This document shows positions 33,353 to 63,602 of a DNA stretch of 64,000 bases, in pieces. The notes under the pieces were generated by a model, which had not been told where the DNA came from, made no database searches, and saw only the letters and a list, made by a program, of their open reading frames with translations. The stretch covers positions 22,615 to 86,614 of the forward strand of contig SUWV01000010.1 of assembly GCA_015061315.1 (NCBI GenBank). Direction: 5' to 3'. Within the stretch, counting starts at the first letter, position 1; the number at the start of each line of letters is the position of its first letter. The DNA is from Lentimicrobiaceae bacterium (lineage in GTDB: Bacteria > Bacteroidota > Bacteroidia > Bacteroidales > F082). Position numbers and translations under genes: made by a program.

Positions 33353-34941
33353 AAATCAAACCACTCGTCTTTAAAATTAACGAGGTAGACTTTCTCGCTC
33401 GCTCTCGTCAGCGCTGTGTATAACCAGCGGAGGTCTCCGACTTCAAGGGCGCTGCCTTCCGGCAGATAGGGCGCTTCAACAAAGACATTGTTCCACTGTC
33501 CACCTTGCGTCTTGTGACATGTCAGTGCATATCCGTATTTTACCTGCAAAGCATTATAATATGGATTCTCCTTCATGGCTTTCCTCCTGTCCGTTGCCCT
33601 CGGAATATCCATATAGTCTTCTTCAACAGATTGATATAATCTCTTAGATTCTTCTTCCGTCAATGCGGGCGCCTCGCTGTGCAAGGTCTCTAACAGTATC
33701 TTGACAGATAGGGTGGGAGTGTCGGCATAATCTAACAGCATTATATCTACATCAGCAAAATGAAAACCATACATCTCCTCAATCTTATTTATCCTCATGA
33801 CTTCAACCATATCGCCATTGGCAAGGAAGGGAATAAGAATCTGAGAATCTGAGAATCTGAGAATCTGAGAATTGGTTGTTTTAGACGTGTCAATTACAGA
33901 GTGTTCATTTTTATGGTGTAATTGGCGCGTCTCTACTTCTTGTCTCGGAGACTTGGTGACTTGGTGACTTAGAGACTCATTAATCCAATAATAATTATTC
34001 TTTACTATCATGAGTTTCTCTCCTGCCGAGAGTTCGCCTTCTTCTTGTAACACTCTGCTTCTGATGGCTTGGTTGAACATATTGGCTCTCTTGTTGGAAC
34101 GGCAGACAACGACAGCGTCGTTATTACTTCTCTTGTCACCGAAACTCTGCCATAACAATTCCTCAAACGACATAGGGTCTATCTTTTCAATATCACTGAA
34201 ATTATTGATGTCTAATAAAGGAAGATGATATTGACTCTGATACAGACTTGGTGGCTCAGTGACTTGGTGACTCGGTGACATTAAATTTCTGATTTTCGTT
34301 GCGTTGTAAAGTATTCCTGAGTCGAAAGCTTGTCGCATTACTTCTTTCATTTCGTAGGTGGCGGTAGTGAGATTGAAGCTGCTACGGAGTAAGTCGAAGT
34401 CCATGGCGGGGCTGATGTCAAGGCCTACGGGCGGCAGCTGTGCCGCGTCTCCGATGAGCAGAAGCTTACAACGGCTGCCGCTGAAGACGTATTCTATCAG
34501 GTCGTCTAACAAAGAACGCGACCATGAGAAACCGTCGCCTTGATCTGAAATCATAGAACATTCATCAACGATGAAGATGGTGTTGATAGATTTGTTCTCG
34601 TCTCTTGTCATTCTCAGTTCTCCATTGGCAGTTGCTTGAAAACGATATAATTTCTTATGTAAGGTCAGCGCTGTCTTGCCAGTGTATCTGCTCATCACCT
34701 TGGCGGCTCTTCCTGTAGGTGCGAGAAGCTGAAACCCTGTTCCTATCTGGGGTAGCGTTTTTACCAATGTGGAAATCAATGTGGTTTTGCCTGTTCCTGC
34801 ATAGCCTCTCAAAAGATAGAGCGGCCTTTCTTTTTCAGTAAGTATAAAAGCAGATAAATGATATAAGACTCTCGCCTGATCTTTGGTCGGGCTAAAGCCG
34901 AAGTTACTCAACAATATATTATATAAGGTATCTCTATCCAT
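33307..34941 (-). CDS. RecD-like superfamily 1B helicase with repeat insertions
   Basis: A 544-residue helicase of the AAA_30/UvrD_C_2 type, related to RecD2/Pif1-like 5'-3' enzymes. Walker A is GYAGTGKT at 46-53 and Walker B IVDECSM with Asp126-Glu127. The C-terminal GYALTCHKTQGGQW and WLYTALTRASEKVY motifs are present. Two inserts are made of repeat DNA: about residues 217-233 (SPSHQVTEPPSLYQ) and about 321-369 (HQVTKSPRQEV... to SQILRFSDSQIL). They split motifs that are adjacent in homologues (NYYWINESL and FLANGDMVEV). The C-terminus is also array-derived. All frames stay open, so the enzyme may still work, with extra loops. Confidence 0.9.
   Translation of the reverse strand: MDRDTLYNILLSNFGFSPTKDQARVLYHLSAFILTEKERPLYLLRGYAGTGKTTLISTLVKTLPQIGTGFQLLAPTGRAAKVMSRYTGKTALTLHKKLYRFQATANGELRMTRDENKSINTIFIVDECSMISDQGDGFSWSRSLLDDLIEYVFSGSRCKLLLIGDAAQLPPVGLDISPAMDFDLLRSSFNLTTATYEMKEVMRQAFDSGILYNATKIRNLMSPSHQVTEPPSLYQSQYHLPLLDINNFSDIEKIDPMSFEELLWQSFGDKRSNNDAVVVCRSNKRANMFNQAIRSRVLQEEGELSAGEKLMIVKNNYYWINESLSHQVTKSPRQEVETRQLHHKNEHSVIDTSKTTNSQILRFSDSQILIPFLANGDMVEVMRINKIEEMYGFHFADVDIMLLDYADTPTLSVKILLETLHSEAPALTEEESKRLYQSVEEDYMDIPRATDRRKAMKENPYYNALQVKYGYALTCHKTQGGQWNNVFVEAPYLPEGSALEVGDLRWLYTALTRASEKVYLVNFKDEWFDLMENEELRMKNELRT
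33836..33875. repeat. Period-8 array inside the RecD-like gene
   Basis: Four near-perfect AATCTGAG units encode NSQILRFSDSQIL on the minus strand. It is the same array family and reading frame as in the NatA-like gene. Confidence 0.85.
33883..33934. repeat. AGAGACG palindromic element inside the RecD-like gene (copy 1)
   Basis: A 52-bp inverted-repeat element: agacgtgtcaattacag at the left pairs with the right end gtgtaattggcgcgtct. The core GTGTT.ATTTT is shared with copy 2 (51829-51882). It encodes about residues 336-353 of the helicase. Confidence 0.8.
33935..33982. repeat. Period-8 array abutting palindrome copy 1
   Basis: Six 8-bp units (ACTTGGTG, ACTTAGAG, TCTCGGAG type) start exactly where the palindrome ends. 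They are translated as part of SLSHQVTKSPRQEV. Confidence 0.8.
34245..34283. repeat. Period-8 array inside the RecD-like gene (upstream)
   Basis: Units GACTTGGT, GGCTCAGT, GACTTGGT, GACTCGGT encode SPSHQVTEPPS, which resembles the peptide from the 33935 array. Confidence 0.8.
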
Positions 34942-34951
34942 ACAGATGATG

Positions 34952-37267
34952 TTAGAAAGGATAACCTATACCAAAGTGTATTACGAAGTCTTTTAGTTGC
35001 AATTTATCTAACCTCCATCTCTCGCCTTCAGGAAATGCTGGGTTTAATATTGGTGCGGCAGCATCAACGCGAACTACAATGAAAGAGATGTCTAAGCGTA
35101 AGCCGATGCCAGCGTCAGCGGCAATCTGTTTGTAGAAGGTGTTGAAGTTAAATTTGCCTCCTTTGAAAGTCTCGCTTTCTTTCAAGGTCCATATATTGCC
35201 GAGGTCGGTGAAGATAGCACCTTTGATGAAGCTGTAAATAGGAAATCTGTATTCTAAGTTGAGCTCCAGCTGTATGTCGCCGATACGCTCTATGTTAAGG
35301 TCTTCGGGATTACTAAATGTTCCTGGACCTAACCCTCTGAACTGCCAGCCTCTCATGCCGTTAGAGCCACCTGCATAGAAACTCTTCTCAAAAGGCATGT
35401 CGTTGGAGTTGCCGTAAGGAATACCTGCACCTACCATAAATCGTGTGGCGATCTGGTTCTCTCCATAAACATATTTGAAATATCTGAAATCAAAAGCGAA
35501 ACGTATATATTGAGCGTATCTGATGCCTAAGAACTCATGGTAATTATCGATGGTTTTGATAATAGATGTGTTGTTGAAAGCCGACAAGATATTACCACTT
35601 GACTGTATGTTAGCCTTGAAATAGAAGAAGTCTTTTAACAATCTTATGTTCTGATTGTTGAAGATGTACGTGTAATCAAAGCCAAAGATTAAGTGGCTCG
35701 TATATTGGTCTTTGATACGTTGGTTTGTTTCTTTATCTAAGATTTCTTTGAATGAAGGAGTAGGATCTACCTTAACACTGTTGAGCGTGATAGGAGTGAG
35801 GATGTGTTGCTCGTACTTGCTTTTCATCCAGTTGTAACCATATGAAAGAAGCATTATTTGTCTTGTGTATATAGGTCTTACCTGTATATTATAACCTGTT
35901 GTCAGAGATGTTCTTGGCTGATATTCCTTGGCGAAATTTCTTAATTTAACAGGACTCAGAAACTGAGGGAAGAAGAGACTCGCTTCAATACCTAACTCTT
36001 TGGTGTTGAATAGATTGGTGTTATTATCGTCGTCAAGTACTGATTGTGCCTGCGTACCTGCTCTAAGTCTTATGTTGAAAATCTCAGAGCCTTTGAAGAT
36101 ATTTTTATTTTGAAAATTAAAACTTCCTAAAATACCTAAGTCGCCACTCGAATTGGTACCTTCTATTTGTATACTATAGCTATTGGCTTTAGCTCTGTTA
36201 AGTACAATATTGCAATCCAAAAGGTTGATGCTATCGTTGTCGCTTTCAACAAGGTTAAACTCTATGTTGTTCTTGTTGTATATCTTCAAGTTGTTGAGTG
36301 CCTTATAAGTCTGTGTCACCTCATGAAGATTATATAAGCCTCCGCTATTTATCTGAATGATATTGTCAAAGGTGTTATATCTAATCTTAGGATTATCGTT
36401 GTATATGAAATGGAAAGTCTCTTTGCCTTGACGTCTGTTAGGTTTGAAAGTGTAAATGGTAGTGTCTATGTCGTTATTGTTAAGTATTAAACCTTTAGGA
36501 TAGATGTAAATGTTATTGACGATATATTGCTTATGTTTTACAATCTCCTGTGTCGATGGGTCTAAGACATTGTCGATTCTTATGTTGATATGTGCTTTCC
36601 TACTGACGAAGTTGGTGTCAACCTCCATGAAGATATAGTCTTTGGTGAAATGGAAATATCCGTTGTTATTGAGATAATCTGTTATCATGTCACGCTCATC
36701 ATCGAGTTTGAAAGCATTGTAAATATCACCTTTCTTCACAGGCAGACTCTCTTCTATATCCATGATAAGATTGTAGATGTTACTGTCGCTTATGTTATAG
36801 AAAATACTATCAACAATATAAGGCTGTGATGGATAGATATTGTAATAAACTTTGGAGATGCCTTTTCTGTTTTTTATCTCTGTTGTGATACCTGAGTTGA
36901 AATAGCCTATGTTGTCAAGATACTTGCTAATCTGTACGACAGAACTTTCCTTCATCTCATTGTCGAAATATACAGGCTTTTCACTAACAGTCTTGTTAAT
37001 CCAATTAGAGAGCTTTCTGTCTTTCCTGCTTTCCGTCTTATAATATACCCACGTGCGCGGCATCAGACCTAAGATCTTAGGATTTGACGATTGTACTATA
37101 TATGGCGTAATGTCAGATTTTGTAAAGGCGACATCTTTTGAATGTATCTCTACGACATTGCTTTTCAATATCATTTCGTCCTCAGGTATATATCTACGCA
37201 TAGAACATGATGCCATAGATACCATCATGAAACATATTGAAATGATATATAAAAAGACCTTACGCAC
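34952..37267 (-). CDS. tamL: TamL-type Omp85 outer-membrane lipoprotein
   Basis: A 771-residue Omp85 family protein. I place the start at the GTG of 37265-37267, which gives a compact lipoprotein signal with the lipobox ...SMASC (Cys21) and a short leader after the -7 box at 37285-37292. The in-frame TTG further up lies upstream of that box. POTRA-like repeats occupy about 40-330 and a beta-barrel follows to the end, with GGSNGMRGWQFRGLGPGT as the Omp85 motif, DLGNIW, and a terminal hydrophobic-aromatic strand ending GYPF. In Bacteroidota TamL replaces TamA and works with TamB in outer-membrane assembly. tamB is not in the window. Confidence 0.88.
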   Translation of the reverse strand: MRKVFLYIISICFMMVSMASCSMRRYIPEDEMILKSNVVEIHSKDVAFTKSDITPYIVQSSNPKILGLMPRTWVYYKTESRKDRKLSNWINKTVSEKPVYFDNEMKESSVVQISKYLDNIGYFNSGITTEIKNRKGISKVYYNIYPSQPYIVDSIFYNISDSNIYNLIMDIEESLPVKKGDIYNAFKLDDERDMITDYLNNNGYFHFTKDYIFMEVDTNFVSRKAHINIRIDNVLDPSTQEIVKHKQYIVNNIYIYPKGLILNNNDIDTTIYTFKPNRRQGKETFHFIYNDNPKIRYNTFDNIIQINSGGLYNLHEVTQTYKALNNLKIYNKNNIEFNLVESDNDSINLLDCNIVLNRAKANSYSIQIEGTNSSGDLGILGSFNFQNKNIFKGSEIFNIRLRAGTQAQSVLDDDNNTNLFNTKELGIEASLFFPQFLSPVKLRNFAKEYQPRTSLTTGYNIQVRPIYTRQIMLLSYGYNWMKSKYEQHILTPITLNSVKVDPTPSFKEILDKETNQRIKDQYTSHLIFGFDYTYIFNNQNIRLLKDFFYFKANIQSSGNILSAFNNTSIIKTIDNYHEFLGIRYAQYIRFAFDFRYFKYVYGENQIATRFMVGAGIPYGNSNDMPFEKSFYAGGSNGMRGWQFRGLGPGTFSNPEDLNIERIGDIQLELNLEYRFPIYSFIKGAIFTDLGNIWTLKESETFKGGKFNFNTFYKQIAADAGIGLRLDISFIVVRVDAAAPILNPAFPEGERWRLDKLQLKDFVIHFGIGYPF

Positions 37268-37284
37268 AATATAAATTTTACTTA

Positions 37285-37292
37285 CAAATATA
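37285..37292 (-). promoter_or_regulatory. -7 box for tamL
   Basis: TATATTTG on the minus strand, 17 bases before the GTG start. It decides the start choice, since the TTG upstream would lie outside the transcript. Confidence 0.55.
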
Positions 37293-37303
37293 AAACTTTT
37301 TTT

Positions 37304-37397
37304 AAGACTACGAGTCAATAGGACAACGAGTCAACAAGTTATTTTTATCACTTTCCACTAGTGTACTCGTAGACTTGTTGTCTTGTTGTCTCTGAAT
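37304..37397. repeat. Period-8 arrays in an inverted pair between tamL and folC
   Basis: The left arm (about 37304-37340, units like ACAACGAG, TCAACAAG) and the right arm (about 37372-37397, units like AGACTTGT, TGTCTTGT) pair with about 16 of 19 matches around a CACTA-GTGTA centre. It probably forms a hairpin downstream of folC. Confidence 0.7.
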
Positions 37398-37400
37398 TTA

Positions 37401-38696
37401 TCACACGACTTCTGCTACGGTAAAATTGCTGCCTCCGACAAAAACGAGGTCTCCTTCCGCAGCATTAGCAAGCGCCGACGAATAGGCTTCCTTGACACTA
37501 TTATATTTCTCGCCCGACAGTCCTGCCTCCTTTGCTTTGTCTGCTAAAATATCGACACTCAATCCTCTCGGTATGTCGGCTTTGCAGAAATAATATTCGG
37601 CTTCCTTTGGTAACAGCTGTAATATTCCGTCGATGTCTTTGTCGTTGACAACACTCAACACGAAATGTAATTTCTTATACTCTGTCTCTGCTAACTGTCT
37701 GTTTACTTCATTGATGCCTGCAACGTTATGTCCGGTGTCGGCTATTGCCAAAGGTTTTTTGTTTATGACCTGCCATCGTCCCATCAAGCCTGTGTTGCTT
37801 ACTACCTTCGACAGTCCTTCGAGTATATGACTCTCCGTGATGTCGAATTTGTCTCTTAACAAATCTAAGGCACATATTATGGTGGCGAGGTTTTTCTTCT
37901 GATAATTACCTAACAAAGGAAATCTTAAATCTTTAAGATATAAGTCATACTCACCATTAGACTTATAAATATCAAATACGTTATATTCTAATGTGTTGTT
38001 GTTTTTCTTTCTGCAATCGAAGATCTGGTCGGCGAAGTAGATAGGGCTTTCTTTTTCTTGTGCAGTCTTTATAAATACATCGCGGCTGCCTTCTTGTGTC
38101 TCGCCTATGACGACTGCGGTGTCTCTCTTGATGATGCCAGCTTTCTCTGTAGCTATCTGTGCTTCGTTTTCTCCCAAGAACTTGACATGGTCTAAGGAGA
38201 TATTCGTTATCACCGACAGCTCAGGGTTTATGACATTGGTGGAGTCTAAGCGTCCGCCCATACCGACTTCTATGATAGCGACATCTATTTTCTCTTTTCT
38301 GAAATAATCGAAAGCCATCGCCACTGTCATCTCGAAGAACGAAAGCTCTAACTCTTCCAATTTATGTTTATGGTTCTCGATGAATGTCACCACTTCGTTT
38401 TCAGGTATCATCTCGCCATTGATGCGTATCCTCTCTCTGAAATCGCGTAGGTGAGGCGAGGTGTAGAGTCCTGTCTTGTAGCCTGCTTCTTGAAACACCG
38501 ATGCTAAAGAGTGTGATGTGCTGCCTTTGCCGTTGGTGCCTGCGATATGTACCGACTTAAAGCAATGTTGAGGATTGTCTAAATAATTGAGTATTTCTAC
38601 TGTGCTGTCGAGGTCAGCCTTGTAGGCGGCGGCTCCGATACGTTGATACATCGGTAATTTGTTGAACATCCAGTCTAATGTCTCTTTATAATTCAT
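37401..38696 (-). CDS. folC: Folylpolyglutamate/dihydrofolate synthase
   Basis: A 431-residue Mur-ligase-fold enzyme adding glutamate to folates, and often joining dihydropteroate and glutamate. The P-loop is GTNGKGST at 53-60, with the GLYTSPHLRDFRERI segment, AIIEVGMGGRLDSTNVI and GRWQVINKKPLAIADTGHN. Length and motifs are complete. The ATG is followed closely upstream by the tonB gene end, so it may be the last gene of that unit. Confidence 0.96.
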   Translation of the reverse strand: MNYKETLDWMFNKLPMYQRIGAAAYKADLDSTVEILNYLDNPQHCFKSVHIAGTNGKGSTSHSLASVFQEAGYKTGLYTSPHLRDFRERIRINGEMIPENEVVTFIENHKHKLEELELSFFEMTVAMAFDYFRKEKIDVAIIEVGMGGRLDSTNVINPELSVITNISLDHVKFLGENEAQIATEKAGIIKRDTAVVIGETQEGSRDVFIKTAQEKESPIYFADQIFDCRKKNNNTLEYNVFDIYKSNGEYDLYLKDLRFPLLGNYQKKNLATIICALDLLRDKFDITESHILEGLSKVVSNTGLMGRWQVINKKPLAIADTGHNVAGINEVNRQLAETEYKKLHFVLSVVNDKDIDGILQLLPKEAEYYFCKADIPRGLSVDILADKAKEAGLSGEKYNSVKEAYSSALANAAEGDLVFVGGSNFTVAEVV

Positions 38697-38712
38697 ATCA
38701 TCTCCTTCTCTT

Positions 38713-38748
38713 ATAGTCTTATTGCTTATTGACTTATTGTCTTATTAT
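38713..38748. repeat. Period-8 array at the tonB 3' end
   Basis: Units TAGTCTTA, TTGCTTAT, TGACTTAT, TGTCTTAT overlap the tonB stop and encode its last residues (IIRQ). Confidence 0.6.
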
Positions 38749-39501
38749 AAATGTGTATGTTATGCTGCCTTTTTGTAATTCGGCTGCTTTATCGTCTTTG
38801 TTGAAGATAGAATTTAAGGCAGCTCGTTTTGCCGATTCCAACATGCTGCTGTTGACTATAGTTGTTCCTTTACCTATCTCGGCTCTCTGCACGCGTCCGT
38901 CTTTGTCGACCCAGATGTCTACTACCACTGTGCCTTCTTCGCTGAACTCTTTGCTTGGCGAGGAGATGCTTTTAGCGCCGCGTCCGCCTAAGTCGTAGGC
39001 AGGACCATCGCCGCTGCCACCATGACCTTCATATCTGTTGATGTCTTTCAGGCCTTCTGGAATGCCACGCTCCATATCGTCTTTCTTATCATCGCTCTGT
39101 TTGTCGTTGTCAGCGTTTTTGGTGACAGGAGCCTTGAACATAGCACGCTGGTTGACGACAGGCTTTTCTTCCTCGACTTTTTCAACAGTGTCTTCTTCCT
39201 CGACTTCTTCAGTCTCTTCTTCTATAGCTGGCACCTCCTCGTCTTCAAAAGTAATATTATCTTCCTTGACTTCTTCAGTCTCTTCAACTTGTTGACTTGT
39301 AGTCTCTTGGTCTTGTAGACTTGTAGTCTCGTAGTCTTGTTGACTTGTTTCATACATTCCAAGATTTACTTCAACGCCTTCTTCTCCAGGAAGAGGTAAT
39401 GGAGTCTTGAAACATAATACGAACAACAAGACTATAGCTGTCGCATGAATGACGACAGTCGTGATGATGCCATATAGTTTATTTCTGTTTTTGTTTGTCA
39501 T
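38734..39501 (-). CDS. tonB: TonB family energy transducer
   Basis: A 255-residue periplasm-spanning protein that relays proton-motive force to TonB-dependent receptors. It has a membrane helix at about 12-32, a long linker (33-160) and a C-terminal TonB domain (about 185-255: GTVVVDIWVDKDGRVQRAEI...). The linker holds a translated period-8 array (about residues 51-72, ETTSLQDQETTSQQ) and an acidic Glu-rich stretch, in place of the usual Pro-Lys repeats. It overlaps exbD by four bases (ATGA). The tonB, exbD and exbB order is a complete set. Confidence 0.9.
   Translation of the reverse strand: MTNKNRNKLYGIITTVVIHATAIVLLFVLCFKTPLPLPGEEGVEVNLGMYETSQQDYETTSLQDQETTSQQVEETEEVKEDNITFEDEEVPAIEEETEEVEEEDTVEKVEEEKPVVNQRAMFKAPVTKNADNDKQSDDKKDDMERGIPEGLKDINRYEGHGGSGDGPAYDLGGRGAKSISSPSKEFSEEGTVVVDIWVDKDGRVQRAEIGKGTTIVNSSMLESAKRAALNSIFNKDDKAAELQKGSITYTFIIRQ
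39287..39350. repeat. Period-8 array inside tonB
   Basis: Eight 8-bp units of ACTTGTAG/TCTTGTAG/TCTCGTAG type. They are read as an 8-residue peptide repeat in the flexible linker. Confidence 0.85.
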
Positions 39502-39911
39502 TTCTTGTTCGATGTGGCTAACAACACTTTATGCTTATTATCAGTCTCCTTGTTTATCTCGTTGACTGCGTCGATGATGTTTACTATATATTGTACAGCT
39601 ACGCTTTTGTCGGAGCGTATCACTACAGTGCCTTCCATCACGTCCGATAACGCGATGTGTATCTCTCTTTGTAAATCGCTTTCACCGACGGCTGTCTCTC
39701 CAACATAATAGTTGTTGTTTTGGTCAACATATACGGTGACACTTTGTTTCGACATCGTCTTGCTTTTACTTGAAGGAAGTAATAACTTGATGGCGTTAGG
39801 TGCAACCAATGTTGATGTCAACATAAAGAATATCAGCAAAAGAAACACCAAATCCGACATCGACGACGAATTGAAATCTATATTCCTTTTATTTCTCGCT
39901 CTTATTGCCAT
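39498..39911 (-). CDS. exbD: Biopolymer transport protein ExbD
   Basis: A 137-residue protein with one membrane helix (about 18-36, SDLVFLLLIFFMLTSTLV) carrying the conserved Asp that takes part in proton movement. A periplasmic domain follows. It is the partner of ExbB and TonB, and its stop overlaps tonB by four bases. Confidence 0.94.
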   Translation of the reverse strand: MAIRARNKRNIDFNSSSMSDLVFLLLIFFMLTSTLVAPNAIKLLLPSSKSKTMSKQSVTVYVDQNNNYYVGETAVGESDLQREIHIALSDVMEGTVVIRSDKSVAVQYIVNIIDAVNEINKETDNKHKVLLATSNKK

Positions 39912-39917
39912 AACTTT

Positions 39918-40010
39918 TGAATTTACAATTTACAGTTTACAATTTACAGTTTACAGTTTACAATTTATAATTTCTTAATTGTTAATTGTTAATTGTTAAT
40001 TGTCAATTGA
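39918..40010. repeat. Period-7 arrays between exbD and exbB
   Basis: TTTACAA/TTTACAG units (39918-39970) then TTAATTG units (39974-40010). Two 7-bp families lie back to back and fill the gap. Confidence 0.85.
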
Positions 40011-40011
40011 A

Positions 40012-40698: not shown

Positions 40699-40745
40699 AA
40701 TTCTTAATCCTTAATTCTTAATTCATAATTCTTAATTCTTAATTG
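40694..40745. repeat. Period-7 array between exbB and anmK
   Basis: Seven 7-bp units AATTCTT/AATCCTT/AATTCAT. It covers the exbB start region and the anmK stop. Confidence 0.75.
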
Positions 40746-41794: not shown

Positions 41795-41805
41795 CTATGC
41801 AGCTA

Positions 41806-43080: not shown

Positions 43081-43095
43081 ATTATTTCTTAGACG

Positions 43096-43126
43096 AAAAA
43101 AAAGCCGTCTTTATTTATGACGGCTT
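43096..43126 (-). terminator. Terminator of gldJ
   Basis: A perfect 8-bp stem (43102-43109 with 43119-43126) is followed on the minus strand by eight T. It separates gldJ from murF. Confidence 0.9.
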
Positions 43127-51808: not shown

Positions 51809-51828
51809 ATAAACTCCATCACTAAAAA

Positions 51829-51882
51829 AGACGCACCAATTACATCGTGTTTATTTTCATCGGTGTAATATGTCACGTCTCT
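51829..51882. repeat. AGAGACG palindromic element (copy 2)
   Basis: A 54-bp inverted repeat: agacgcaccaattacatc pairs with ggtgtaatatgtcacgtct. Core bases GTGTT.ATTTT.AT.GGTGTAAT are shared with copy 1 in the helicase. A short period-8 array (acttggtgactt) follows at 51883-51902. Confidence 0.8.
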
Positions 51883-51917
51883 ACTTGGTGACTTAAATCT
51901 TAACAAATCTTTTATTC

Positions 51918-53606: not shown

Positions 53607-53608
53607 GA

Positions 53609-54184: not shown

Positions 54185-54188
54185 AATC

Positions 54189-55172: not shown

Positions 55173-55180
55173 CTTTAAAA

Positions 55181-56530: not shown

Positions 56531-56534
56531 ACGC

Positions 56535-57410: not shown

Positions 57411-57437
57411 AATAATAGTATTTAATGTTTAATAAAA

Positions 57438-57505
57438 AAGACTTAAAGTCGCGAAGACGCATAGACATAGAACCATGAGACTTAATGCCTTTGTGACTTT
57501 TAGTC
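57438..57505. repeat. Period-8 array in the rnfB leader
   Basis: Units of AGACTTAA, AGTCGCGA, AGACGCAT, GACTTAAT type between the rnfB promoter and its start, so it would be in the mRNA leader. It is more degenerate than the others. Confidence 0.5.
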
Positions 57506-57507
57506 CA

Positions 57508-57515
57508 CAAATATA
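57508..57515 (-). promoter_or_regulatory. -7 box for rnfB
   Basis: TATATTTG on the minus strand, about 100 bases before the rnfB ATG. It suggests rnfB can be transcribed apart from the RseC-family gene. Confidence 0.5.
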
Positions 57516-57545
57516 ACAATTAATTTTTTTTGTTTCCGCAATTTT

Positions 57546-57956
57546 TTATTGAATTTCATACTCGAATTTACGCTTTATTTTGTCTTTGAAAAGATATAAA
57601 ATAAGGTAATATGGTATTAATGTCCCTATGGAAATTAAGGCGTTGATGCCTTCGTCTATTTTTAAAGCGTTGAGAATAAATATCATCGAGATTAATATTA
57701 TTACGGGAATGACGTATGCAAAGATGACGGCACGGTTAGCCTGACCTAATCCCATGCTGATTTTTACCTCTTGTCCTATAGATAAATTTTTATCTTTTGG
57801 AGCAGGAATGCTGATGATTTTCTCCTGCATCTCCGACATATTGCACGCACCTTTTATATTACATGAGACACATGAGCTTTTCGATAAAATCTTTATTTCT
57901 ATATTCTCGCCATCTATTTTCGTGACGATGCCTTCGTGAGATATGCGATTTTCCAT
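57546..57956 (-). CDS. RseC/SoxR-reducing family protein
   Basis: A 136-residue membrane protein. The N-terminal domain has Cys residues spaced as SSCVSCNIKGAC (about 28-39), then two helices (about 77-97 and 105-122). RseC-family members are often found next to rnf genes and may act in electron delivery or in sigma-factor signalling. In this window it heads the rnf region. Confidence 0.8.
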   Translation of the reverse strand: MENRISHEGIVTKIDGENIEIKILSKSSCVSCNIKGACNMSEMQEKIISIPAPKDKNLSIGQEVKISMGLGQANRAVIFAYVIPVIILISMIFILNALKIDEGINALISIGTLIPYYLILYLFKDKIKRKFEYEIQ

Positions 57957-57972
57957 ATATTATAATTTTCTA

Positions 57973-57980
57973 CAAAGATA
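57973..57980 (-). promoter_or_regulatory. -7 box for the RseC-family gene
   Basis: TATCTTTG on the minus strand, 16 bases before the ATG. A period-8 array (about 57991-58022) lies just upstream. Confidence 0.55.
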
Positions 57981-57990
57981 AAAAAATACT

Positions 57991-58022
57991 CGTACTCTTG
58001 TCGTCTTGTTGATACCTTGACT
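57991..58022. repeat. Period-8 array between the RseC-family and YihY genes
   Basis: About four CTTGTCGT/CTTGTTGA-type units in the divergent promoter region. Confidence 0.5.
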
Positions 58023-58032
58023 TATTTTTTAT

Positions 58033-58040
58033 TATCTTCG
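58033..58040 (+). promoter_or_regulatory. Possible -7 box for the YihY/BrkB gene
   Basis: TATCTTCG differs from TAnnTTTG by one base. It is 55 bases before the ATG. Confidence 0.35.
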
Positions 58041-58095
58041 CAAAAAAAATATTTTTTACACGTAGCAATTATCGTATCTCAGCTGTTGTTCTGTT

Positions 58096-59061
58096 ATGAA
58101 GTCGTTTGATAAAATAAAAACTTATTTTGAAGATGTCGTAGAACGTGTTAAATCAGTTTTACGTCTTGTCGTGATACCAGGTTTCGGCGGCGTTCCTCTT
58201 TATGATGTCCTTGTCTATTTTGTCAGAGGTTTCACTCAGGTCAATCTCATTGACCGCGCAGCTGCTGTGGCTTTCAATGTCTTCCTCGCTTTGTTCCCGA
58301 TGATATTGTTTCTGTTTACGCTCATTCCTTACTTCCCTTTACAAGGAGTGACGGCTAACATACTCGAGGCTCTTCAAGATATACTTCCACCTGGAACCTA
58401 CGACAGTGTGTCTTCTACGATAAACGAAATCATGTCGATAGAACACGGCGGTCTTATGTCGATAGGTCTTTTGTTAGCTTTCTATTTCAGCACAAGCGCA
58501 GTGAGTTCTTTTTTCCGCGGTTTTAATATGGGTGACAACGAGTTCGGTCAGGTCTCATTTATGAAACAACAGATTTATTCTATCTTAGTGATGCTTATGT
58601 TTGTGGCTTTGCTGTTGTTATCAATAGTCTTGATGACCTTAGGACAGAAACTGCTGCCGATATTTTTTGTCAAGATACATTTCTATAACGGCTTCGTTAC
58701 CTTCCTTATTAATTTATTACGGTGGATTATAATTATCTTCGCCTTGATTGTGGCGGTCTCGCTTCTATATCACTTCGGCAATCCTCGTAGTAAAAGGTTT
58801 AAGCTCTTTACTCCAGGCTCGCTTCTGTTTACGGGATTGTTTATCGTTGGAACAATATTATTCAATTTTTATATCTCTAACATTTCTACCTACAACCTTC
58901 TTTATGGTTCTATCGGAGGCTTGATTATCTTTGTGATATGGATTTATTTTAACTGTATTCTTATATTGATAGGGTATGAATTGAATAAAAGTATCACCAA
59001 AGCGACAGTATTCAAATTTGATATGATAAAGATGATTGAGGATAAAAAGGATAATGAATGA
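58096..59061 (+). CDS. YihY/BrkB family membrane protein
   Basis: A 321-residue integral membrane protein. Six or so helices are visible (about 45-75, 110-135, 150-180, 195-225, 240-260, 275-300). It has the family phrases DRAAAVAFNVFLALFPMILF and GSIGGLIIFVIWIYFNCILI. The old RNase BN name for this family is not supported. Function is unknown. It is divergent from the RseC-family gene and convergent with rpmH. Confidence 0.9.
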   Translation: MKSFDKIKTYFEDVVERVKSVLRLVVIPGFGGVPLYDVLVYFVRGFTQVNLIDRAAAVAFNVFLALFPMILFLFTLIPYFPLQGVTANILEALQDILPPGTYDSVSSTINEIMSIEHGGLMSIGLLLAFYFSTSAVSSFFRGFNMGDNEFGQVSFMKQQIYSILVMLMFVALLLLSIVLMTLGQKLLPIFFVKIHFYNGFVTFLINLLRWIIIIFALIVAVSLLYHFGNPRSKRFKLFTPGSLLFTGLFIVGTILFNFYISNISTYNLLYGSIGGLIIFVIWIYFNCILILIGYELNKSITKATVFKFDMIKMIEDKKDNE

Positions 59062-59095
59062 AGTCTGTGGTCCGTGTCAGTAGACTGTTGACCTA

Positions 59096-59130
59096 AAATA
59101 AAAAAATCCGACCACTTAGTGACCGGATTT
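59096..59130 (-). terminator. Terminator of rpmH
   Basis: A 12-bp stem with two G:T pairs (59104-59115 with 59119-59130), a TTA loop and a minus-strand T-run. It lies between rpmH and the converging YihY gene. Confidence 0.85.
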
Positions 59131-59173
59131 CCTTTAACCTTAAATAATAATTATTAGGTACGGCGTAACAGAA

Positions 59174-59320
59174 TTAATATTCGTCAGAAACTGTAAGTTT
59201 CTTTCTGCCTTTAGCACGACGTGCTTTTAAAACTTTACGACCATTGGCTGTTGACATTCTTGATCTGAAGCCGTGTTTGTTTCTACGTTTTCTGTTTGAT
59301 GGTTGAAATGTGCGTTTCAT
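59174..59320 (-). CDS. rpmH: 50S ribosomal protein bL34
   Basis: A 48-residue protein beginning [20 protein letters not shown] and then [20 protein letters not shown]. All family positions match. It stands alone here, with no rnpA or dnaA nearby. The -7 box is at 59367-59374. Confidence 0.97.
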
Positions 59321-59366
59321 TGTCTTATGTATTTTTTCTTCTTAATTTTCCCTCTAAATTGAGTTG

Positions 59367-59374
59367 CAAAAGTA
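59367..59374 (-). promoter_or_regulatory. -7 box for rpmH
   Basis: TACTTTTG on the minus strand, followed by GC, 46 bases before the rpmH ATG. Confidence 0.5.
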
Positions 59375-59506
59375 GTAAATTTTTCTTAAAGAAAAAATAT
59401 TTTCTTAAAAAAAATAATAATATTTATTTTGTTGCTAAACAATGAGTTAAGAAAATGCTTCCGTGAATATCACTCATAATAGACTTTTCCTTCGCTAAAA
59501 TAACGT

Positions 59507-59542
59507 AATTATTCATTGTGAATTAAGCATTATAAATTAAGC
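59507..59542. repeat. Period-7 array
   Basis: Five 7-bp units ATTATTC/ATTGTGA/ATTAAGC/ATTATAA/ATTAAGC lie right before palindrome copy 3. The rest of the 59321-59506 gap is AT-rich with nothing else visible. Confidence 0.5.
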
Positions 59543-59578
59543 AGAGACGCATCAATCATTCATATTTGACACGTCTCC
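59543..59578. repeat. AGAGACG palindromic element (copy 3, short)
   Basis: A 36-bp version: AGAGACGCATCAA at the left pairs with TTTGACACGTCTC at the right. The interior is shorter than in copies 1, 2, 4 and 5. Confidence 0.7.
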
Positions 59579-59615
59579 ACTTGTGGTCTTGTAGTCTTGT
59601 AGACTTGTTGTCTTA
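59579..59615. repeat. Period-8 array abutting palindrome copy 3
   Basis: Units ACTTGTGG, TCTTGTAG, TCTTGTAG, ACTTGTTG start at the element edge and run into the stop codon of the first dipeptidase gene. Confidence 0.75.
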
Positions 59616-61067
59616 TTTCACCGGTACATTCTTCAAGGTCTCAACCAAGAAGTCCCAGAACAATGGCACTGTGTCGATCTTAAGAGCTTCGTCTGGTGAG
59701 TGAGGAAATACCAAAGTAGGTCCGAATGAAACCATATCCCAGTTAGGATATTTTGAACCTAAGATGCCGCATTCCAAACCAGCGTGAATAACCATTGTCT
59801 TTGGTGTCTTGCCGTATTTGTCGGCGTACACTTTCTTCATTGTGTTGTAGATGATAGAGTTGATGTTTGGTTTCCAGCCTGGATATGAACCTGTCGACTC
59901 TGCTCTTGCGCCGCAGCTTTCCAAAACCTTACGCATTTCTGCTGCCAACTCGTCTTTGCTTGCATCGACTAAGCTACGTTGTAATGATGCTGTCATGATC
60001 TGACCGTCGACTAATTTTACGATAGCTAAGTTCGATGATGTCTCTACTGTGCCTTCAAAGTCTTTTGACATGGCGATGACGCCGTTAGGATATTTAGCGA
60101 CAGCTTCGATGAGTTTTGCGATAGTTTCTTTATCGATGACTTTTGCTGGCATTTCTGCTGGAACGACAGTGATGCTCATTTCTGGTTCAACAGCTGCGAA
60201 TTGTTCCTTAACGACAGCTTCAAACTCAGGAACGTATGCTAACAATTCTTCTGCCTTTGCTTCAGGAACTGTGATTGTCACGAATGATTCACGTGGTATT
60301 GCGTTGCGTAAGCTTCCGCCTTGGATGTCAGCGACTCTTGCGTTGAATTTTTCTGTAGCTTTCAATAACAATGCGTTCATCACCTTGTTAGCGTTGGCGC
60401 GACCTAAGATGATGTCCATGCCTGAGTGACCGCCTTTTAATCCTTTTACTATAAGTTGGAATGCCTTTGAACCTGCAGGTACGTCTTCAAACTTAGGTGT
60501 GAAGTAACCGCAAGTGTCGATGCCGCCGGCGCAACCAACGTAGAGTTCGCCTTCTGTCTCAGAGTCCATGTTGATGAGGATGTCGCCTTTCAAGACGCCT
60601 GGTTCTAAAGCGTTAGCGCCTGTCATGCCTGTTTCTTCGTCAATTGTGAAGAGACCTTCGATAGGTCCGTGAACTAAATCTGTTGCTTCGAGAACTGCCA
60701 TCGCTGCTGCTGCACCAACGCCGTTGTCAGCGCCGAGTGTTGTGCCGTTAGCTTTTACCCAACCGTCTTCGATGCGTGTCTCAATAGGGTCTTTCTCGAA
60801 ATCGTGTACTTTGTCAGAGTTCTTCTGTGGAACCATATCGACGTGTGCTTGTAACACAACGCCCATTCTGTCTTCGTAACCTGGAGTAGCAGGCTTACGG
60901 ATGATGACGTTACCGACTTTATCAACGATGGTCTCAAGACCTAAGTTCTCGCCAAATTGTTTTAAGAAAGCAACAACTTTCTCTTCTTTCTTTGAAGGAC
61001 GTGGAATCTGTGTCAATTCATAGAAGTTCTTCCACAATCCATTAGGTTCTAAATTTTTGATGCTCAT
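59613..61067 (-). CDS. pepD: Aminoacyl-histidine dipeptidase (PepD, copy A)
   Basis: A 484-residue M20 family dizinc peptidase acting on Xaa-His dipeptides such as carnosine. Metal and catalytic residues are visible in LQAHVDMVPQK, GTTLGADNGVGAA and TIDEETGMTG, plus HAGLECGILGSK and FPHSPDE at the C-terminal end. No signal peptide, so cytoplasmic. It lies beside a second, similar gene (61207-62670), which suggests a tandem duplication. Confidence 0.95.
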   Translation of the reverse strand: MSIKNLEPNGLWKNFYELTQIPRPSKKEEKVVAFLKQFGENLGLETIVDKVGNVIIRKPATPGYEDRMGVVLQAHVDMVPQKNSDKVHDFEKDPIETRIEDGWVKANGTTLGADNGVGAAAAMAVLEATDLVHGPIEGLFTIDEETGMTGANALEPGVLKGDILINMDSETEGELYVGCAGGIDTCGYFTPKFEDVPAGSKAFQLIVKGLKGGHSGMDIILGRANANKVMNALLLKATEKFNARVADIQGGSLRNAIPRESFVTITVPEAKAEELLAYVPEFEAVVKEQFAAVEPEMSITVVPAEMPAKVIDKETIAKLIEAVAKYPNGVIAMSKDFEGTVETSSNLAIVKLVDGQIMTASLQRSLVDASKDELAAEMRKVLESCGARAESTGSYPGWKPNINSIIYNTMKKVYADKYGKTPKTMVIHAGLECGILGSKYPNWDMVSFGPTLVFPHSPDEALKIDTVPLFWDFLVETLKNVPVK

Positions 61068-61073
61068 TTTTTT

Positions 61074-61203
61074 AAAGTTTATAGTTTAAAGTTTAGTGTT
61101 TAGAGTAGTTTACAGTTTAGAGTTAAGAGTGGAAAGTTTATACACTTTAAACATAGAAACTTTCAACTTTTAACTACTCTAAACTATAAACTATGAACTC
61201 TAC
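61074..61203. repeat. Period-7 arrays in an inverted pair between the pepD copies
   Basis: AGTTTAA/AGTTTAG units (61074-61142) face CTAAACT/ATAAACT units (61146-61203). Shared arm sequence includes GTTTAGAGTAGTT and GAAAGTTT. The pair can fold on itself and fills the gap. Confidence 0.75.
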
Positions 61204-61206
61204 ACT

Positions 61207-62670
61207 TTATTGTTTCGGTGCATTAACCAAAATATCTTTCAACAAATCCCAGAATTTCTGTACTGTAGGGATTTCGATTCTCTCGTCTGGTGAGTGGACG
61301 CCGCGTAGGGTAGGACCGAATGAAATCATATCCATGCCTGCGATTTTGTCGCCTACCAAGCCGCATTCCAAACCTGCGTGGATAGCCTTTACTTTTGGCT
61401 CTACGCCAAAACGATCTTTATAGCATTTCTCAGCTACCTTGCGAATCTCTGAGTCTGGATTTGGTGTCCAGCCTGGATAACCGTCGGTGTGTAAGACTTC
61501 TGCGTTAGCGAGGTTAAATACAGCTTCAACCATATTGGCGACGTCTTCTTTCGATGACTCGATGGAACTTCTTTGTGATGTTTGGATGAAGAAGAAACCT
61601 TCTTTTTTCTTCACTGAAGCAAGGTTGGTAGATGTCTCAACGAAGTTAGGAATTGTCTGCGACATAGCAATGACGCCGTGAGGACAAGCATAGAGTGCGT
61701 TGAGCAAGTCGAACTGTGTCATTTCGTCAATGACTAACTCTGGCTGTATTTCAGCGACGTTTGCCTTGACGGAGAGGTTAGGCTCTGTGACCTGATATTC
61801 TCTTTGGAAGTTGGCTTCCATCACTTTCACGAACTCTTCAAATTCTTCCTGGAACTCTTCTGGTACGAAAGCTACAGCCATTGCCTCGCGTGCTATGGCG
61901 TTGCGGAGGTTGCCGCCTTGAATGTCATAGATTCTGAGGTCGAACTCGTTAGCACCTTGCCATAATATTCTTGTGAGGAGTTTGTTGGCGTTAGCTAAGT
62001 TCTTGTTGATGTCGTCGCCGGAGTGACCGCCTTTGAGGCCGCTTACCATGATGGTATAGGCGACGCTCCTTCTTGGAGCTGGTTCCATTCTGTAATAAAC
62101 CTTGATGATGGTGTCCATGCCGCCGGCGCAGCCGATGAAGATCTCGCCTTCGTCTTCTGAGTCAAGGTTGAGCAAGATACGACCGCTGAAGTCTTTAGGG
62201 TCTAATTTCTCTGCTCCGGTGAGTCCTGTCTCTTCGTCAACGGTGAAGATACATTCTATAGGACCGTGTTGTACTGTAGGGTCAGCGATGACTGCCAATG
62301 CTGCTGCTACACCGATACCGTCGTCGGCACCGAGTGTCGTTCCGTTAGCGTGGAGCCAGTCACCTTTTATAATAGCCTCGATAGGGTCGTTCTCGAAGTC
62401 GTGTACCTTATCGCTGTTTTTCTCGCATACCATGTCGGTATGTGCTTGTAAGATGATAGTCTTGCGGTCTTCGAAGCCTGGTGTTGCAGGAGCCTTCATG
62501 ATGACGTTGCCGCATTCTTCAACGATATATTCTACCTTATGTTCTTTAGCCCAGTTGATGAGATATTCAACCATTTTGCCTTCTTTCTTTGAAGGACGTG
62601 GTACTGCCAAAATGCCATGAAATTCTTTCCATACGCATTCAGGAGTGAGATTTAAAACACATTCGTTCAT
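61207..62670 (-). CDS. pepD: Aminoacyl-histidine dipeptidase (PepD, copy B)
   Basis: A 487-residue paralogue of the gene before it. The same motifs are seen: LQAHTDMVCEK, GTTLGADDGIGVA, TVDEETGLTG, GLECGLVGDK and GVHSPDE. The two share many phrases (RPSKKE, GGHSG, YDIQGGNLRNAI versus DIQGGSLRNAI) but differ throughout, so the duplication is not recent. Confidence 0.95.
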   Translation of the reverse strand: MNECVLNLTPECVWKEFHGILAVPRPSKKEGKMVEYLINWAKEHKVEYIVEECGNVIMKAPATPGFEDRKTIILQAHTDMVCEKNSDKVHDFENDPIEAIIKGDWLHANGTTLGADDGIGVAAALAVIADPTVQHGPIECIFTVDEETGLTGAEKLDPKDFSGRILLNLDSEDEGEIFIGCAGGMDTIIKVYYRMEPAPRRSVAYTIMVSGLKGGHSGDDINKNLANANKLLTRILWQGANEFDLRIYDIQGGNLRNAIAREAMAVAFVPEEFQEEFEEFVKVMEANFQREYQVTEPNLSVKANVAEIQPELVIDEMTQFDLLNALYACPHGVIAMSQTIPNFVETSTNLASVKKKEGFFFIQTSQRSSIESSKEDVANMVEAVFNLANAEVLHTDGYPGWTPNPDSEIRKVAEKCYKDRFGVEPKVKAIHAGLECGLVGDKIAGMDMISFGPTLRGVHSPDERIEIPTVQKFWDLLKDILVNAPKQ

Positions 62671-62688
62671 GTTAGTTATTTTTTATGT

Positions 62689-63336
62689 TTATAATTTTAA
62701 TAATTCAATAGTCTTCTTAGGGTCTTCCGATTTAAACACAGCGTTGCCTGCAACTAAGGCGTTGGCACCTGCTGCGAACAACTTAGAGGCGTTCTCGGTA
62801 TTGACGCCGCCATCTACTTCTATCATAGTGTTATATCCGTTCTTGTCGATCATCTCGCGCAGCTTCTCAATCTTGGAATATGTCCTCTCGATGAATTTCT
62901 GTCCGCCGAAGCCTGGGTTCACCGACATCAGCAATACTAGATCTAAATCGCCCAAGATGTCTTCTAATACCGACACCGGAGTGTGAGGGTTGAGAACTAC
63001 GCCAGCTTTCACGTCCATTGATTTTAACTTTTGTACAGAACGATGGAGATGCGTAGATGCTTCATAATGAAATGTTATTATTTCTGCGCCAGCTTCTTTA
63101 AACTTCTCGAAATATCTGTCAGGCTCCACTATCATCAGATGGACGTCTAAAGGCTTAGTCGCCATCTTGTTTATCGCCTGCACTACGGGAATGCCGTAAG
63201 ATATGTTGGGAACGAATACGCCGTCCATGATGTCTAAATGATACCAATCGGCTTGACTTTCATTGAGCATTTTGATGTCGTCGGCTAAATGAAGGAAGTC
63301 GGCTGACAATAGGGAAGGAGATATTATCTTTTGCAT
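62689..63336 (-). CDS. rpe: Ribulose-phosphate 3-epimerase
   Basis: A 215-residue TIM-barrel enzyme of the pentose phosphate pathway interconverting ribulose 5-phosphate and xylulose 5-phosphate. I take the ATG at 63334-63336 (MQKIISPSLLSADF). An in-frame TTG nine codons earlier overlaps the -7 box. Conserved HLDIMDGVFVPN, LDVHLMIVEP, MSVNPGFGGQKF and EVDGGVN hold the metal and phosphate sites. Confidence 0.97.
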   Translation of the reverse strand: MQKIISPSLLSADFLHLADDIKMLNESQADWYHLDIMDGVFVPNISYGIPVVQAINKMATKPLDVHLMIVEPDRYFEKFKEAGAEIITFHYEASTHLHRSVQKLKSMDVKAGVVLNPHTPVSVLEDILGDLDLVLLMSVNPGFGGQKFIERTYSKIEKLREMIDKNGYNTMIEVDGGVNTENASKLFAAGANALVAGNAVFKSEDPKKTIELLKL

Positions 63337-63360
63337 GACATGAAATTTTTTACGTTTTTG

Positions 63361-63368
63361 CAAAGATA
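63361..63368 (-). promoter_or_regulatory. -7 box for rpe
   Basis: TATCTTTG on the minus strand, 24 bases before the chosen ATG. It rules out the upstream TTG as start. Confidence 0.6.
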
Positions 63369-63373
63369 AGAAA

Positions 63374-63405
63374 AAGTCTAAAGTCTAAAGTCTAAAGTCT
63401 AAAGA
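63374..63405. repeat. Period-7 array upstream of rpe
   Basis: Four near-identical AGTCTAA units, the cleanest 7-bp array in the window. Confidence 0.85.
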
Positions 63406-63412
63406 TTTTTTT

Positions 63413-63432
63413 AAGTCGCCAAGTCACCGAGT
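63413..63432. repeat. Period-8 array abutting palindrome copy 4
   Basis: AAGTCGCC-AAGTCACC-GAGT ends exactly at the AGAGACG of copy 4. The same 20 bases recur at 63521. Confidence 0.8.
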
Positions 63433-63513
63433 AGAGACGTGACACTAATATGGTTGATATATCTTTATATGAAAATGACGAAATCATATTTTAACCATAT
63501 TATGGTGCGTCTC
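63433..63513. repeat. AGAGACG palindromic element (copy 4)
   Basis: An 81-bp element: AGAGACGTGACACTAATATGG... at the left pairs with ...AACCATATTATGGTGCGTCTC at the right, about 22 bp of arm. It has a longer AT-rich loop than the other copies. Confidence 0.8.
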
Positions 63514-63520
63514 ATTTTTT

Positions 63521-63548
63521 AAGTCGCCAAGTCACCGAGTCACCGAGT
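63521..63548. repeat. Period-8 array abutting palindrome copy 5
   Basis: AAGTCGCC-AAGTCACC-GAGTCACC-GAGT. It has one unit more than the array before copy 4. Confidence 0.8.
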
Positions 63549-63602
63549 AGAGACGCGTCGATGATACCAATGTTAATAAACAATATATCATTGACATGTC
63601 TC
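63549..63602. repeat. AGAGACG palindromic element (copy 5)
   Basis: A 54-bp element. AGAGACGCGTCGATGATAC pairs with ATATCATTGACATGTCTC with G:T pairs. It is in direct tandem with copy 4 and its array. Confidence 0.75.

What the first reader, a model, noticed from the sequence alone, without database searches (positions are those of the whole stretch)
33883..63602. A dispersed family of AGAGACG-bounded palindromic elements attached to 8-bp arrays
Five inverted-repeat elements (33883-33934, 51829-51882, 59543-59578, 63433-63513, 63549-63602) share AGAGACG/CGTCTC-type ends. Each abuts, on the same side of the palindrome, a period-8 array of AAGTCACC/ACTTGGTG-type units. Copies 1 and 2 share an internal core (CAATTACA..GTGTT.ATTTT.AT.GGTGTAAT), so they descend from one sequence. 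Seen directly: ends, arms and adjacency. Inference: the array plus palindrome is one composite unit, perhaps moved by a REP-associated tyrosine transposase or spread as a MITE. I do not recognise a named family.
Basis: partly seen in the sequence, partly recalled or inferred. Interest (0 to 1): 0.8.

Follow-up and report, generated by a model that had tools for sequence, protein, structure and literature searches.

The report
Hairpins that land in stutter DNA
A family of roughly 50-base DNA hairpins, with dozens of matches in each of eleven related bacterial species, often sits beside or inside short 7- or 8-base stutter repeats, and at one fixed spot of the 8-base unit where that could be measured, so the repeats likely serve as landing sites for a very small mobile element whose enzyme is still unknown.

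Summary
The five palindromes are real. Copies 1, 2 and 5 belong to one covarying hairpin family (model R1): TAGAGACG...CGTC, nearly always flanked G...T. R1 has 53-58 matches in each of 11 of 99 genomes of the genus (about 57 scored per genome), exactly the close relatives of the window's species, and none in 88. Copy 4 is a longer subfamily, copy 3 a short GTGG variant. The arrays are not shown to be part of a composite mobile unit: AAGTC-type arrays outnumber the hairpins (73 places against 25 in 464 kb), change words between species at the same place, and exist without hairpins. Where both meet, the hairpin abuts the array unit at AAG|T in 13 of 14 cases (1 in 8 expected), and in some cases the array resumes in phase beyond it. 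So arrays most likely are landing sites. Two in-frame coding loops (helicase, DUF819) show hairpin, array-only and other states in relatives. RAYT linkage was tested and not met: no Y1 transposase in this genome; of 30 Y1 loci of the genus none has a GAGACG palindrome within 800 bp. Closest known: GTAG REPs, and cyanobacterial SDRs in heptamer arrays (recalled).

The parts
33884..33935 (-). Copy 1: R1 hairpin TAGAGACG...CGTC, in frame inside the helicase gene
   Evidence: R1 hit 33882-33935, 65.1 bits; ORF open through it
33936..33977 (-). 8-bp AAGTC-type array on the GTAG side of copy 1 (AAGTCACC AAGTCACC AAGTCTCC GAGACAAG AAG)
   Evidence: TRF row 33947-33977; sequence
33836..33872 (.). Second 8-bp array (AGAATCTG x 4.6), different word, just past the other side of copy 1
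   Evidence: TRF, 100% matches
33307..34941 (-). Helicase gene (AAA_30/AAA_19 and UvrD_C_2) with two array-bearing loops
   Evidence: Pfam; orthologs in 10 relatives
34245..34279 (-). 8-bp AAGTC-type array in the other loop of the same gene, no hairpin in this genome
51830..51883 (-). Copy 2: R1 hairpin
   Evidence: R1 hit 51828-51883, 66.9 bits
51884..51894 (-). Short array remnant AAGTCACCAAG (1.4 units) on the GTAG side of copy 2
   Evidence: sequence
59544..59577 (-). Copy 3: short variant hairpin, tag GTGG instead of GTAG
   Evidence: same sequence in G051, other hairpins at the same place in six relatives
59580..59614 (-). 8-bp array (AAGACAAC/AAGTCTAC) between the stop codon of the M20 peptidase gene 59613-61067(-) and copy 3
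   Evidence: TRF; Pfam
63413..63431 (+). 8-bp array AAGTCGCC AAGTCACC GAG before copy 4
   Evidence: sequence
63432..63513 (+). Copy 4: hairpin of an 80-bp subfamily, second copy at L110:13964-14043
   Evidence: score 9.5
63521..63547 (+). 8-bp array AAGTCGCC AAGTCACC GAGTCACC GAG between copies 4 and 5
   Evidence: TRF 63522-63548
63548..63602 (+). Copy 5: R1 hairpin, abutting the array at GAG|TAGAGACG
   Evidence: R1 hit, 67.1 bits

Best explanation
The palindromes are copies of a small covarying GTAG-hairpin family that often sit beside or inside tandem arrays of 7 or 8 bases, abutting the 8-base unit at one fixed position, and they likely got there by inserting into arrays that were already present, predicted to be moved by an unidentified enzyme acting from elsewhere. 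Shown: the family, its spread in one clade, near-fixed G...T borders, phase lock with the 8-bp unit, arrays without hairpins, hairpins without arrays, and different states of the same site in relatives. Inferred: the hairpin is handled as a folded single strand, as REPs are thought to be, and enters between G and T, so that AAG^TC of an array unit is a favoured target; the arrays change words and length on their own, likely by replication slippage, and more so on the GTAG side after insertion. The hairpins tend to point with transcription, often just after a stop codon, and some lie in frame inside genes. This may reflect insertion into an exposed strand of transcribed DNA or selection for harmless 3'-end sites. 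Untested: what moves them and whether they still move.
For: Copies and clade: R1 in 11 of 99 genus genomes, 53-58 matches each with about 57 candidates scored per genome (opposite-strand matches of one hairpin not excluded), 0 in 88. The 11 are this genome and the ten with 82% or more DNA identity. 25 distinct copies in 464 kb of this genome. Order draw: 2 of 295, the own genome and one marginal hit, E 8.6e-4. Structure: 90.5% of cells paired, 68 double-change cells against 24.4 +- 6.3 shuffled; stem position 9-52 is T.G 34, C.A 18, T-A 4, never C-G, of 56. Borders: G before in 66 of 68, T after in 67 of 68, next base free. Phase: motif [AG]AG[TA]C left of the hairpin in the AAG|T phase in 13 of 14 (p 2e-11), right of it in 4 of 6; first right-hand motif in phase in 7 of 11 own elements, 9 of 19 in all. 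Arrays beside hairpins: left 30 of 68, right 15 of 68, against 5-10% of random intergenic GT sites. Relatives: DUF819 loop with hairpin in G051, hairpin plus array in G053, hairpin plus 1.4 units in G052, array only in G078, open over the 330 nt read. Helicase loop: R1 hairpin only here, other arrays in relatives, a different short hairpin at AAG|TAGGGACG in G064 and G065. G065 hairpin against G051 7-bp array after the same gene; own L111 hairpin plus arrays against neither in G051. Orientation: 30 codirectional against 8 opposite.
Against: No enzyme was found. Flanks swapped between elements give the same in-phase score as true pairs (0.439 against 0.444 in this genome), since all flanks share one array type; the phase result shows a fixed position, not each single insertion. 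The shift test is clear only in this genome (20 elements); pooled over three species it is weak (0.373 against 0.299-0.353 for 56) and in G065 there is none (0.315 against 0.345-0.400). No locus was found with the identical array with and without the hairpin; relatives have already changed words. Arrays are more often on the left than the right (30 against 15 of 68, p 0.01), which simple insertion does not predict. Two hairpins have a 7-bp array on the left but an in-phase 8-bp motif on the right (L124:13710, L137:8051), so arrays also change after insertion. In G065 the right-hand excess is not significant (3 of 28). Three of the 24 own elements (L120) are one tandem duplication. Most of the sampled hairpins of this genome, G051 and G065 helped to build R1, so their hits are by construction; the other eight genomes are not.
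Confidence: 0.6

Rival explanations
1. Array and palindrome are one composite mobile unit that spreads together.
For: At own L111:7246 both hairpin and arrays are missing in G051. At L120:231-629 array and hairpin are repeated together in tandem. Flanks are interchangeable between elements.
Against: 73 AAGTC-type array places, 9 near R1 hairpins, 12 near any GAGACG palindrome. The same hairpin type sits in 8-bp arrays, several 7-bp arrays or none. Array-only orthologous sites.
Confidence: 0.12
2. The hairpin comes first and breeds the array: replication stalls at the hairpin and slips by 7-8 bases, building the array on its GTAG side.
For: Left bias of arrays, 30 against 15 of 68. A left 7-bp array with an in-phase right 8-bp motif at two sites. 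Array words differ between species at one site.
Against: Most AAGTC-type arrays have no R1 hairpin. Only 3 of 97 TAGAGACG palindromes from named records of other taxa have an array beside them. The array words are a shared vocabulary across sites and species; some arrays resume in phase on the far side.
Confidence: 0.15
3. They are ordinary REPs mobilised by a RAYT (Y1 HUH transposase) that is missing from this assembly or was lost.
For: GTAG or GTGG tag 5' of an imperfect hairpin with a conserved mismatch, as REPs are described in PMC6006769. Y1_Tnp genes in 6 of the 10 R1-bearing relatives. A weak R1-like match (24.7 bits) about 1 kb from one of them (L187).
Against: None in this genome, 95% complete, nor in G051, G052, G064, G072, all with 57 R1 matches. 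Of 30 Y1 loci read (of 50 matches in 15 genus genomes) 3 hold a GAGACG-ended palindrome, none within 800 bp (one locus is cut by a contig end). 0 of 80 palindrome loci of other taxa hold a Y1 gene; the profile found 30 of 30 Y1 loci (15 were seeds) and 5 of 5 outside controls.
Confidence: 0.2
4. They are fixed functional 3' RNA hairpins (mRNA ends or terminators), vertically inherited and not mobile.
For: Of 40 hairpins with an upstream ORF reading towards them, 34 lie within 60 bp of its end. Hairpins with changed stems are kept at the L34-M20 peptidase gap in six relatives.
Against: In-frame copies inside genes. The same place holds different hairpin types or none in relatives. No T-run follows the stem in most copies read; no Rfam family in the window.
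Confidence: 0.08

Closest known systems
GTAG-tagged REPs and their RAYT transposases (Di Nocera 2013, PMC3733652: first part and passages read; Quentin 2018, PMC6006769: passages read)
   Same: GTAG (here also GTGG) 5' of an imperfect hairpin with a mismatch, many dispersed copies, often downstream of genes, some inside genes.
   Different: R1 is 47-57 nt with a large A-rich loop; no linked or resident Y1 gene; often beside 7/8-bp arrays at a fixed phase. The Di Nocera passages list GTAG REPs for other phyla and only CGTC repeats for Bacteroidetes.
SDRs, small dispersed repeats of Nostoc and relatives (Elhai 2008, doi 10.1101/gr.074336.107)
   Same: Recalled, not read: 21-27 nt hairpins with compensatory changes, often embedded in heptameric tandem repeats, mobile without a known enzyme. 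The closest parallel known to me. Only its title and its citation as SDRs were seen, in PMC3116915.
   Different: Longer hairpin, 8-bp AAGTC arrays with a measured phase lock, another kind of bacterium, in-frame coding sites.
Rickettsia palindromic elements (RPE), CGTC-tagged (described in PMC3733652 passages)
   Same: Palindromes inserted in frame inside genes; ends CGTC; no known transposase.
   Different: R1 carries GTAG at the other end and an array context; different family.
TAACTGA heptamer arrays of Beggiatoaceae, Cyanobacteria and Bacteroidetes (MacGregor 2015, PMC4679880; passages and one section read)
   Same: 7-bp arrays in short intergenic stretches, missing in some close relatives.
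   Different: Other words; no hairpin partner described in what I read.
BrickBuilt of Porphyromonas gingivalis (PMC4596501, abstract read)
   Same: A minisatellite joined to inverted-repeat ends in a bacterial genome.
   Different: 23-bp units inside a MITE; here the hairpin is beside or inside the array and the array is not shown to be part of the element.

Membership tests
GTAG REP (RAYT-associated) | GTAG or GTGG tetranucleotide just 5' of a hairpin | tested here: met
   G before TAG in 66 of 68 elements; copy 3 has GTGG
GTAG REP (RAYT-associated) | Imperfect stem kept by paired changes | tested here: met
   68 double-change cells against 24.4 +- 6.3
GTAG REP (RAYT-associated) | Cognate RAYT gene flanked by the same hairpins | tested here: not met
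GTAG REP (RAYT-associated) | Hairpin strand bound and cleaved by the RAYT | not testable with these tools
   needs protein
MITE | Ends shared with a resident IS that has a gene between them | tested here: not met
   in the clade loci held (overlapping loci counted more than once) 171 left-half matches, 5 without the right half within 100 bp: 3 at a locus end, 1 truncated copy, 1 loose match; no split parent seen. Whole genomes were not searched for this.
MITE | Target site duplication | tested here: inconclusive
   borders are G...T with no longer repeat; a 1-bp T repeat cannot be told from none
SDR-like (Elhai 2008, recalled) | Very short hairpin element embedded in 7/8-bp tandem repeats | tested here: met
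   array beside 30 of 68 on the left, 15 of 68 on the right, background 5-10%
SDR-like (Elhai 2008, recalled) | Sequence identity to SDR families of Nostoc | not tested
   paper not held
   array-only orthologous sites in G058, G071, G078, though one site lacks both in G051

The most novel reading that the evidence does not exclude
Arrays and hairpins form one two-layer system: genome-wide 7/8-bp arrays are self-renewing attachment sites, inside genes as well as between them, and the GTAG hairpin is a transcription-guided single-strand element that docks in them, moved by an enzyme class other than the known Y1 RAYTs. Its TAGAGACG ends, seen in records of at least eight phylum-level groups, would be the recognition mark of that enzyme.
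Probability: 0.12. Interest if true: 0.82.

Novelty: new variant of a known kind. Interest (0 to 1): 0.58.

Why it matters
It turns a vague 'repeat-rich intergenic region' into a measurable target-site rule (G^T, AAG^TC of an 8-bp unit) for one of the smallest candidate mobile elements, in a clade with many sequenced species. It gives coding loops where arrays and hairpins replace each other in frame between species, so protein linkers are being rewritten by repeats. It also raises a sharp question: what moves TAGAGACG-ended hairpins, found in all 99 held genomes of this genus and in records of many phyla, when no linked transposase is seen.

Tried and rejected
Composite unit, RAYT and MITE readings: tested and set out above. 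A retroelement route: RVT_1 (PF00078) is in 7 of the 11 R1 genomes and not found in 4, three of which are only 79-84% complete, so a common reverse transcriptase is not supported but not excluded. Rfam: no family in the window at gathering scores. Split parent element: none in the loci held. Array link in other taxa: 3 of 97 TAGAGACG palindromes have an array beside them, so it is not general. Literature: the search for the palindrome letters found 972 papers, 20 listed, none about bacterial palindromic repeats by title. Searches listed no paper whose title or shown abstract describes this family; only listings were seen, open-licence papers only.

Errors mended: one search used too strict a cut-off and found nothing, redone. 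One search built the Y1 profile from plus-strand frames only, redone on both strands. In one search the G051 array densities are inflated by N runs (every period shows about 8 per kb); I do not use them. The 74 array rows are 73 distinct places. Searches gave few usable orthologs of the chosen sites, so the in-array hairpins at L121 and L118 have no relative to compare. Rows dropped: 8 opposite-strand duplicates and L120:334-424 (holds N), leaving 24 of 33, 19 opposite-strand duplicates and the partial hit L160:4087-4133, leaving 44 of 64. A1 holds only copies of 47-57 nt with TA before one end, as chosen. One search was this report with four fields in the wrong form.

Full report
What is there. 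The five inverted repeats are at the stated coordinates. A mechanical scan scores them 5.0-9.5; the reversed window reaches 4.0, and three other window stretches reach 5.0. In this genome the exact pattern TAGAGACG-N10-40-CGTCTC has 27 listed matches at 20 distinct places and none for the pattern read backwards. Two classes appear, about 25 bp and about 50 bp. Among 173 genomes of the family, all 99 held genomes of the genus and 3 of the 74 others have such palindromes; the listed inner stems differ between species while the ends stay TAGAGACG. A scan of one genome per species found the same ends in records titled Bacteroidetes, Cyanobacteria, Chloroflexi, Acidobacteria, Spirochaetes, Kiritimatiellota, Geobacter or Desulfuromonas, Methylococcales and others. 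No call gives the name of the window's organism.

The long family. 56 long copies from three species align with constant ends TAGAGACG and CGTCT and a conserved CC...AAATAAACA loop. The 16-pair stem is 90.5% paired, with 68 double changes against 24.4 +- 6.3 in shuffles and at most 25 in slid versions. One stem position is T.G in 34, C.A in 18, T-A in 4 and never C-G in 56 sequences. A covariance model, R1, gives 53-58 matches in each of 11 genomes of the genus and none in 88. About 57 candidates were scored per genome, so larger numbers are possible; opposite-strand matches of one hairpin may be among them, as. The 11 are this genome and the ten with 82% or more identity. In 464 kb of this genome there are 25 distinct copies, about 130 in the genome by extrapolation. 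In an even draw of 295 genomes of the order only the own genome and one marginal match (E 8.6e-4) appear (19 candidates scored per genome).

The arrays. In the same 464 kb, tandem repeats of period 7 and 8 cover 6.1 bases per kb each; periods 4-6, 9-13 and 15 at most 0.31 (14 and 16 are multiples). AAGTC-type arrays of three or more units lie at 73 distinct places, 9 within 40 bp of an R1 hairpin and 12 near any GAGACG palindrome. Array words differ between species at the same place: one helicase loop shows AAGTCACC, CAACGGA, CAACAGC, GACTACAA, TCTCAGAA and others in 11 species, though weak in G052. Loop lengths are multiples of three and no stop lies in the loops; G065 has one stop, past the C-terminal end of the alignment.

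How they meet. For 68 hairpins of three species the base before TAGAGACG is G in 66, the base after CGTC is T in 67, and the next base is free. Where an AAGTC array with two or more in-phase motifs lies to the left (14 of 68), the hairpin abuts it at AAG|T in 13. Right-hand arrays are in the continuing phase in 4 of 6, and the first right-hand motif is in phase in 7 of 11 own elements and 9 of 19 in all. Taking out TAGAGACG...CGTC leaves an 8-bp array in continuing phase at L111:7246, L115:16869, L118:7115, L121:5294, L122:8272 and L130:7933, with 4-8 of 8 matches across the joint. Out-of-phase removals score lower in this genome (0.444 against 0.24-0.38). Pooled over three species the difference is small, and in G065 it is absent. 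Flanks swapped between elements score as high as true pairs (0.439), since all share one array type. Arrays of period 7 or 8 flank 30 of 68 on the left and 15 of 68 on the right, against 5-10% of random intergenic GT sites. The left excess over the right (p 0.01) is not explained by insertion alone.

States in relatives. Helicase 33307-34941: only this genome has an R1 hairpin in the loop; G064 and G065 have a different short hairpin at AAG|TAGGGACG; G058 and G071 have an 8-bp array without a GAGACG hairpin. DUF819: G051 hairpin, G053 array plus a decayed hairpin, G052 1.4 units plus hairpin, G078 a pure AAGACAAC array, open over the 330 nt read. Gap between an L34-like ORF (my reading of the peptide) and the M20 peptidase gene: the window and G051 agree, six relatives have other hairpins with GAGACG ends, G053 none. 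L157 of G065 has a hairpin where G051 has a 7-bp array just after the same gene; own L111 has arrays and hairpin where G051 has neither; own L117 has a hairpin in frame near a gene start where G051 has none.

Orientation. Of 68 hairpins 10 lie at an end, 5 inside ORFs (all sense), 53 between ORFs: 30 with both neighbours codirectional, 8 opposite, 10 convergent, 5 divergent (30 against 8, p 5e-4). Of the 40 with an upstream ORF reading towards them, 34 lie within 60 bp of its end. ORFs are mechanical calls, and the in-gene count may lean towards sense because frames must stay open.

Who moves them. PF01797 is absent here and in G051, G052, G064 and G072. Of 50 Y1 matches in 15 genus genomes, 30 loci were read: 3 hold a GAGACG-ended palindrome, more than 800 bp from the gene. 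R1 gives nothing better than 24.7 bits there (L187, about 1 kb away). A Y1 profile that finds 30 of 30 (15 were its seeds) and 5 of 5 outside controls finds none in the 80 named palindrome loci, each at most 8 kb. One clade Y1 protein carries YIRNQNEHH, like subclass 1.2 of PMC6006769, which the passages describe as not sharing IS properties. RVT_1 is in 7 of 11 R1 genomes.

Verdict. A new hairpin family that works like a REP or an SDR and most likely uses 7/8-bp arrays, above all AAG^TC of the 8-bp unit, as landing sites. It is not filed as a RAYT REP (linkage tested and not met) nor as a MITE. The insertion step and the enzyme remain inferred.

Noticed in passing
window 33307-34941: A conserved helicase carries two loops in which 11 species have different, mostly repeat-encoded peptides, with the frame kept: repeats rewriting a protein linker.
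   Followed up: yes
L093:12619-13758 and orthologs: A DUF819 protein has the R1 hairpin in frame in G051 and a pure AAGACAAC array in G078 at the same loop.
   Followed up: yes
L374 (G076 helicase loop): A different palindrome (GAGCTTGTCGAA...TTCGACAAGCTC type) sits beside a 7-bp array at the same coding loop.
   Followed up: no
L120:231-629 (own genome): Hairpin plus 7-bp array repeated in tandem about four times with a period near 103 bp, with an N run in one unit.
   Followed up: no
window 63364-63800: The ribulose-phosphate epimerase gene is followed here by a DUF5606 gene; in G051, G052, G064 and G065 a sigma-70-like frame follows (named by me from its sequence): a break of gene order at the double hairpin and array stretch.
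   Followed up: partly
L121 minus strand offset 8151 (own genome): A truncated R1 left half (TAGAGACGCGTCGATGAC) at the end of an in-phase AAGTCACC array, a possible decay product.
   Followed up: no
A1 columns 9 and 52: A stem position that is T.G, C.A or rarely T-A but never C-G in 56 copies, a conserved wobble that an enzyme might read.
   Followed up: partly
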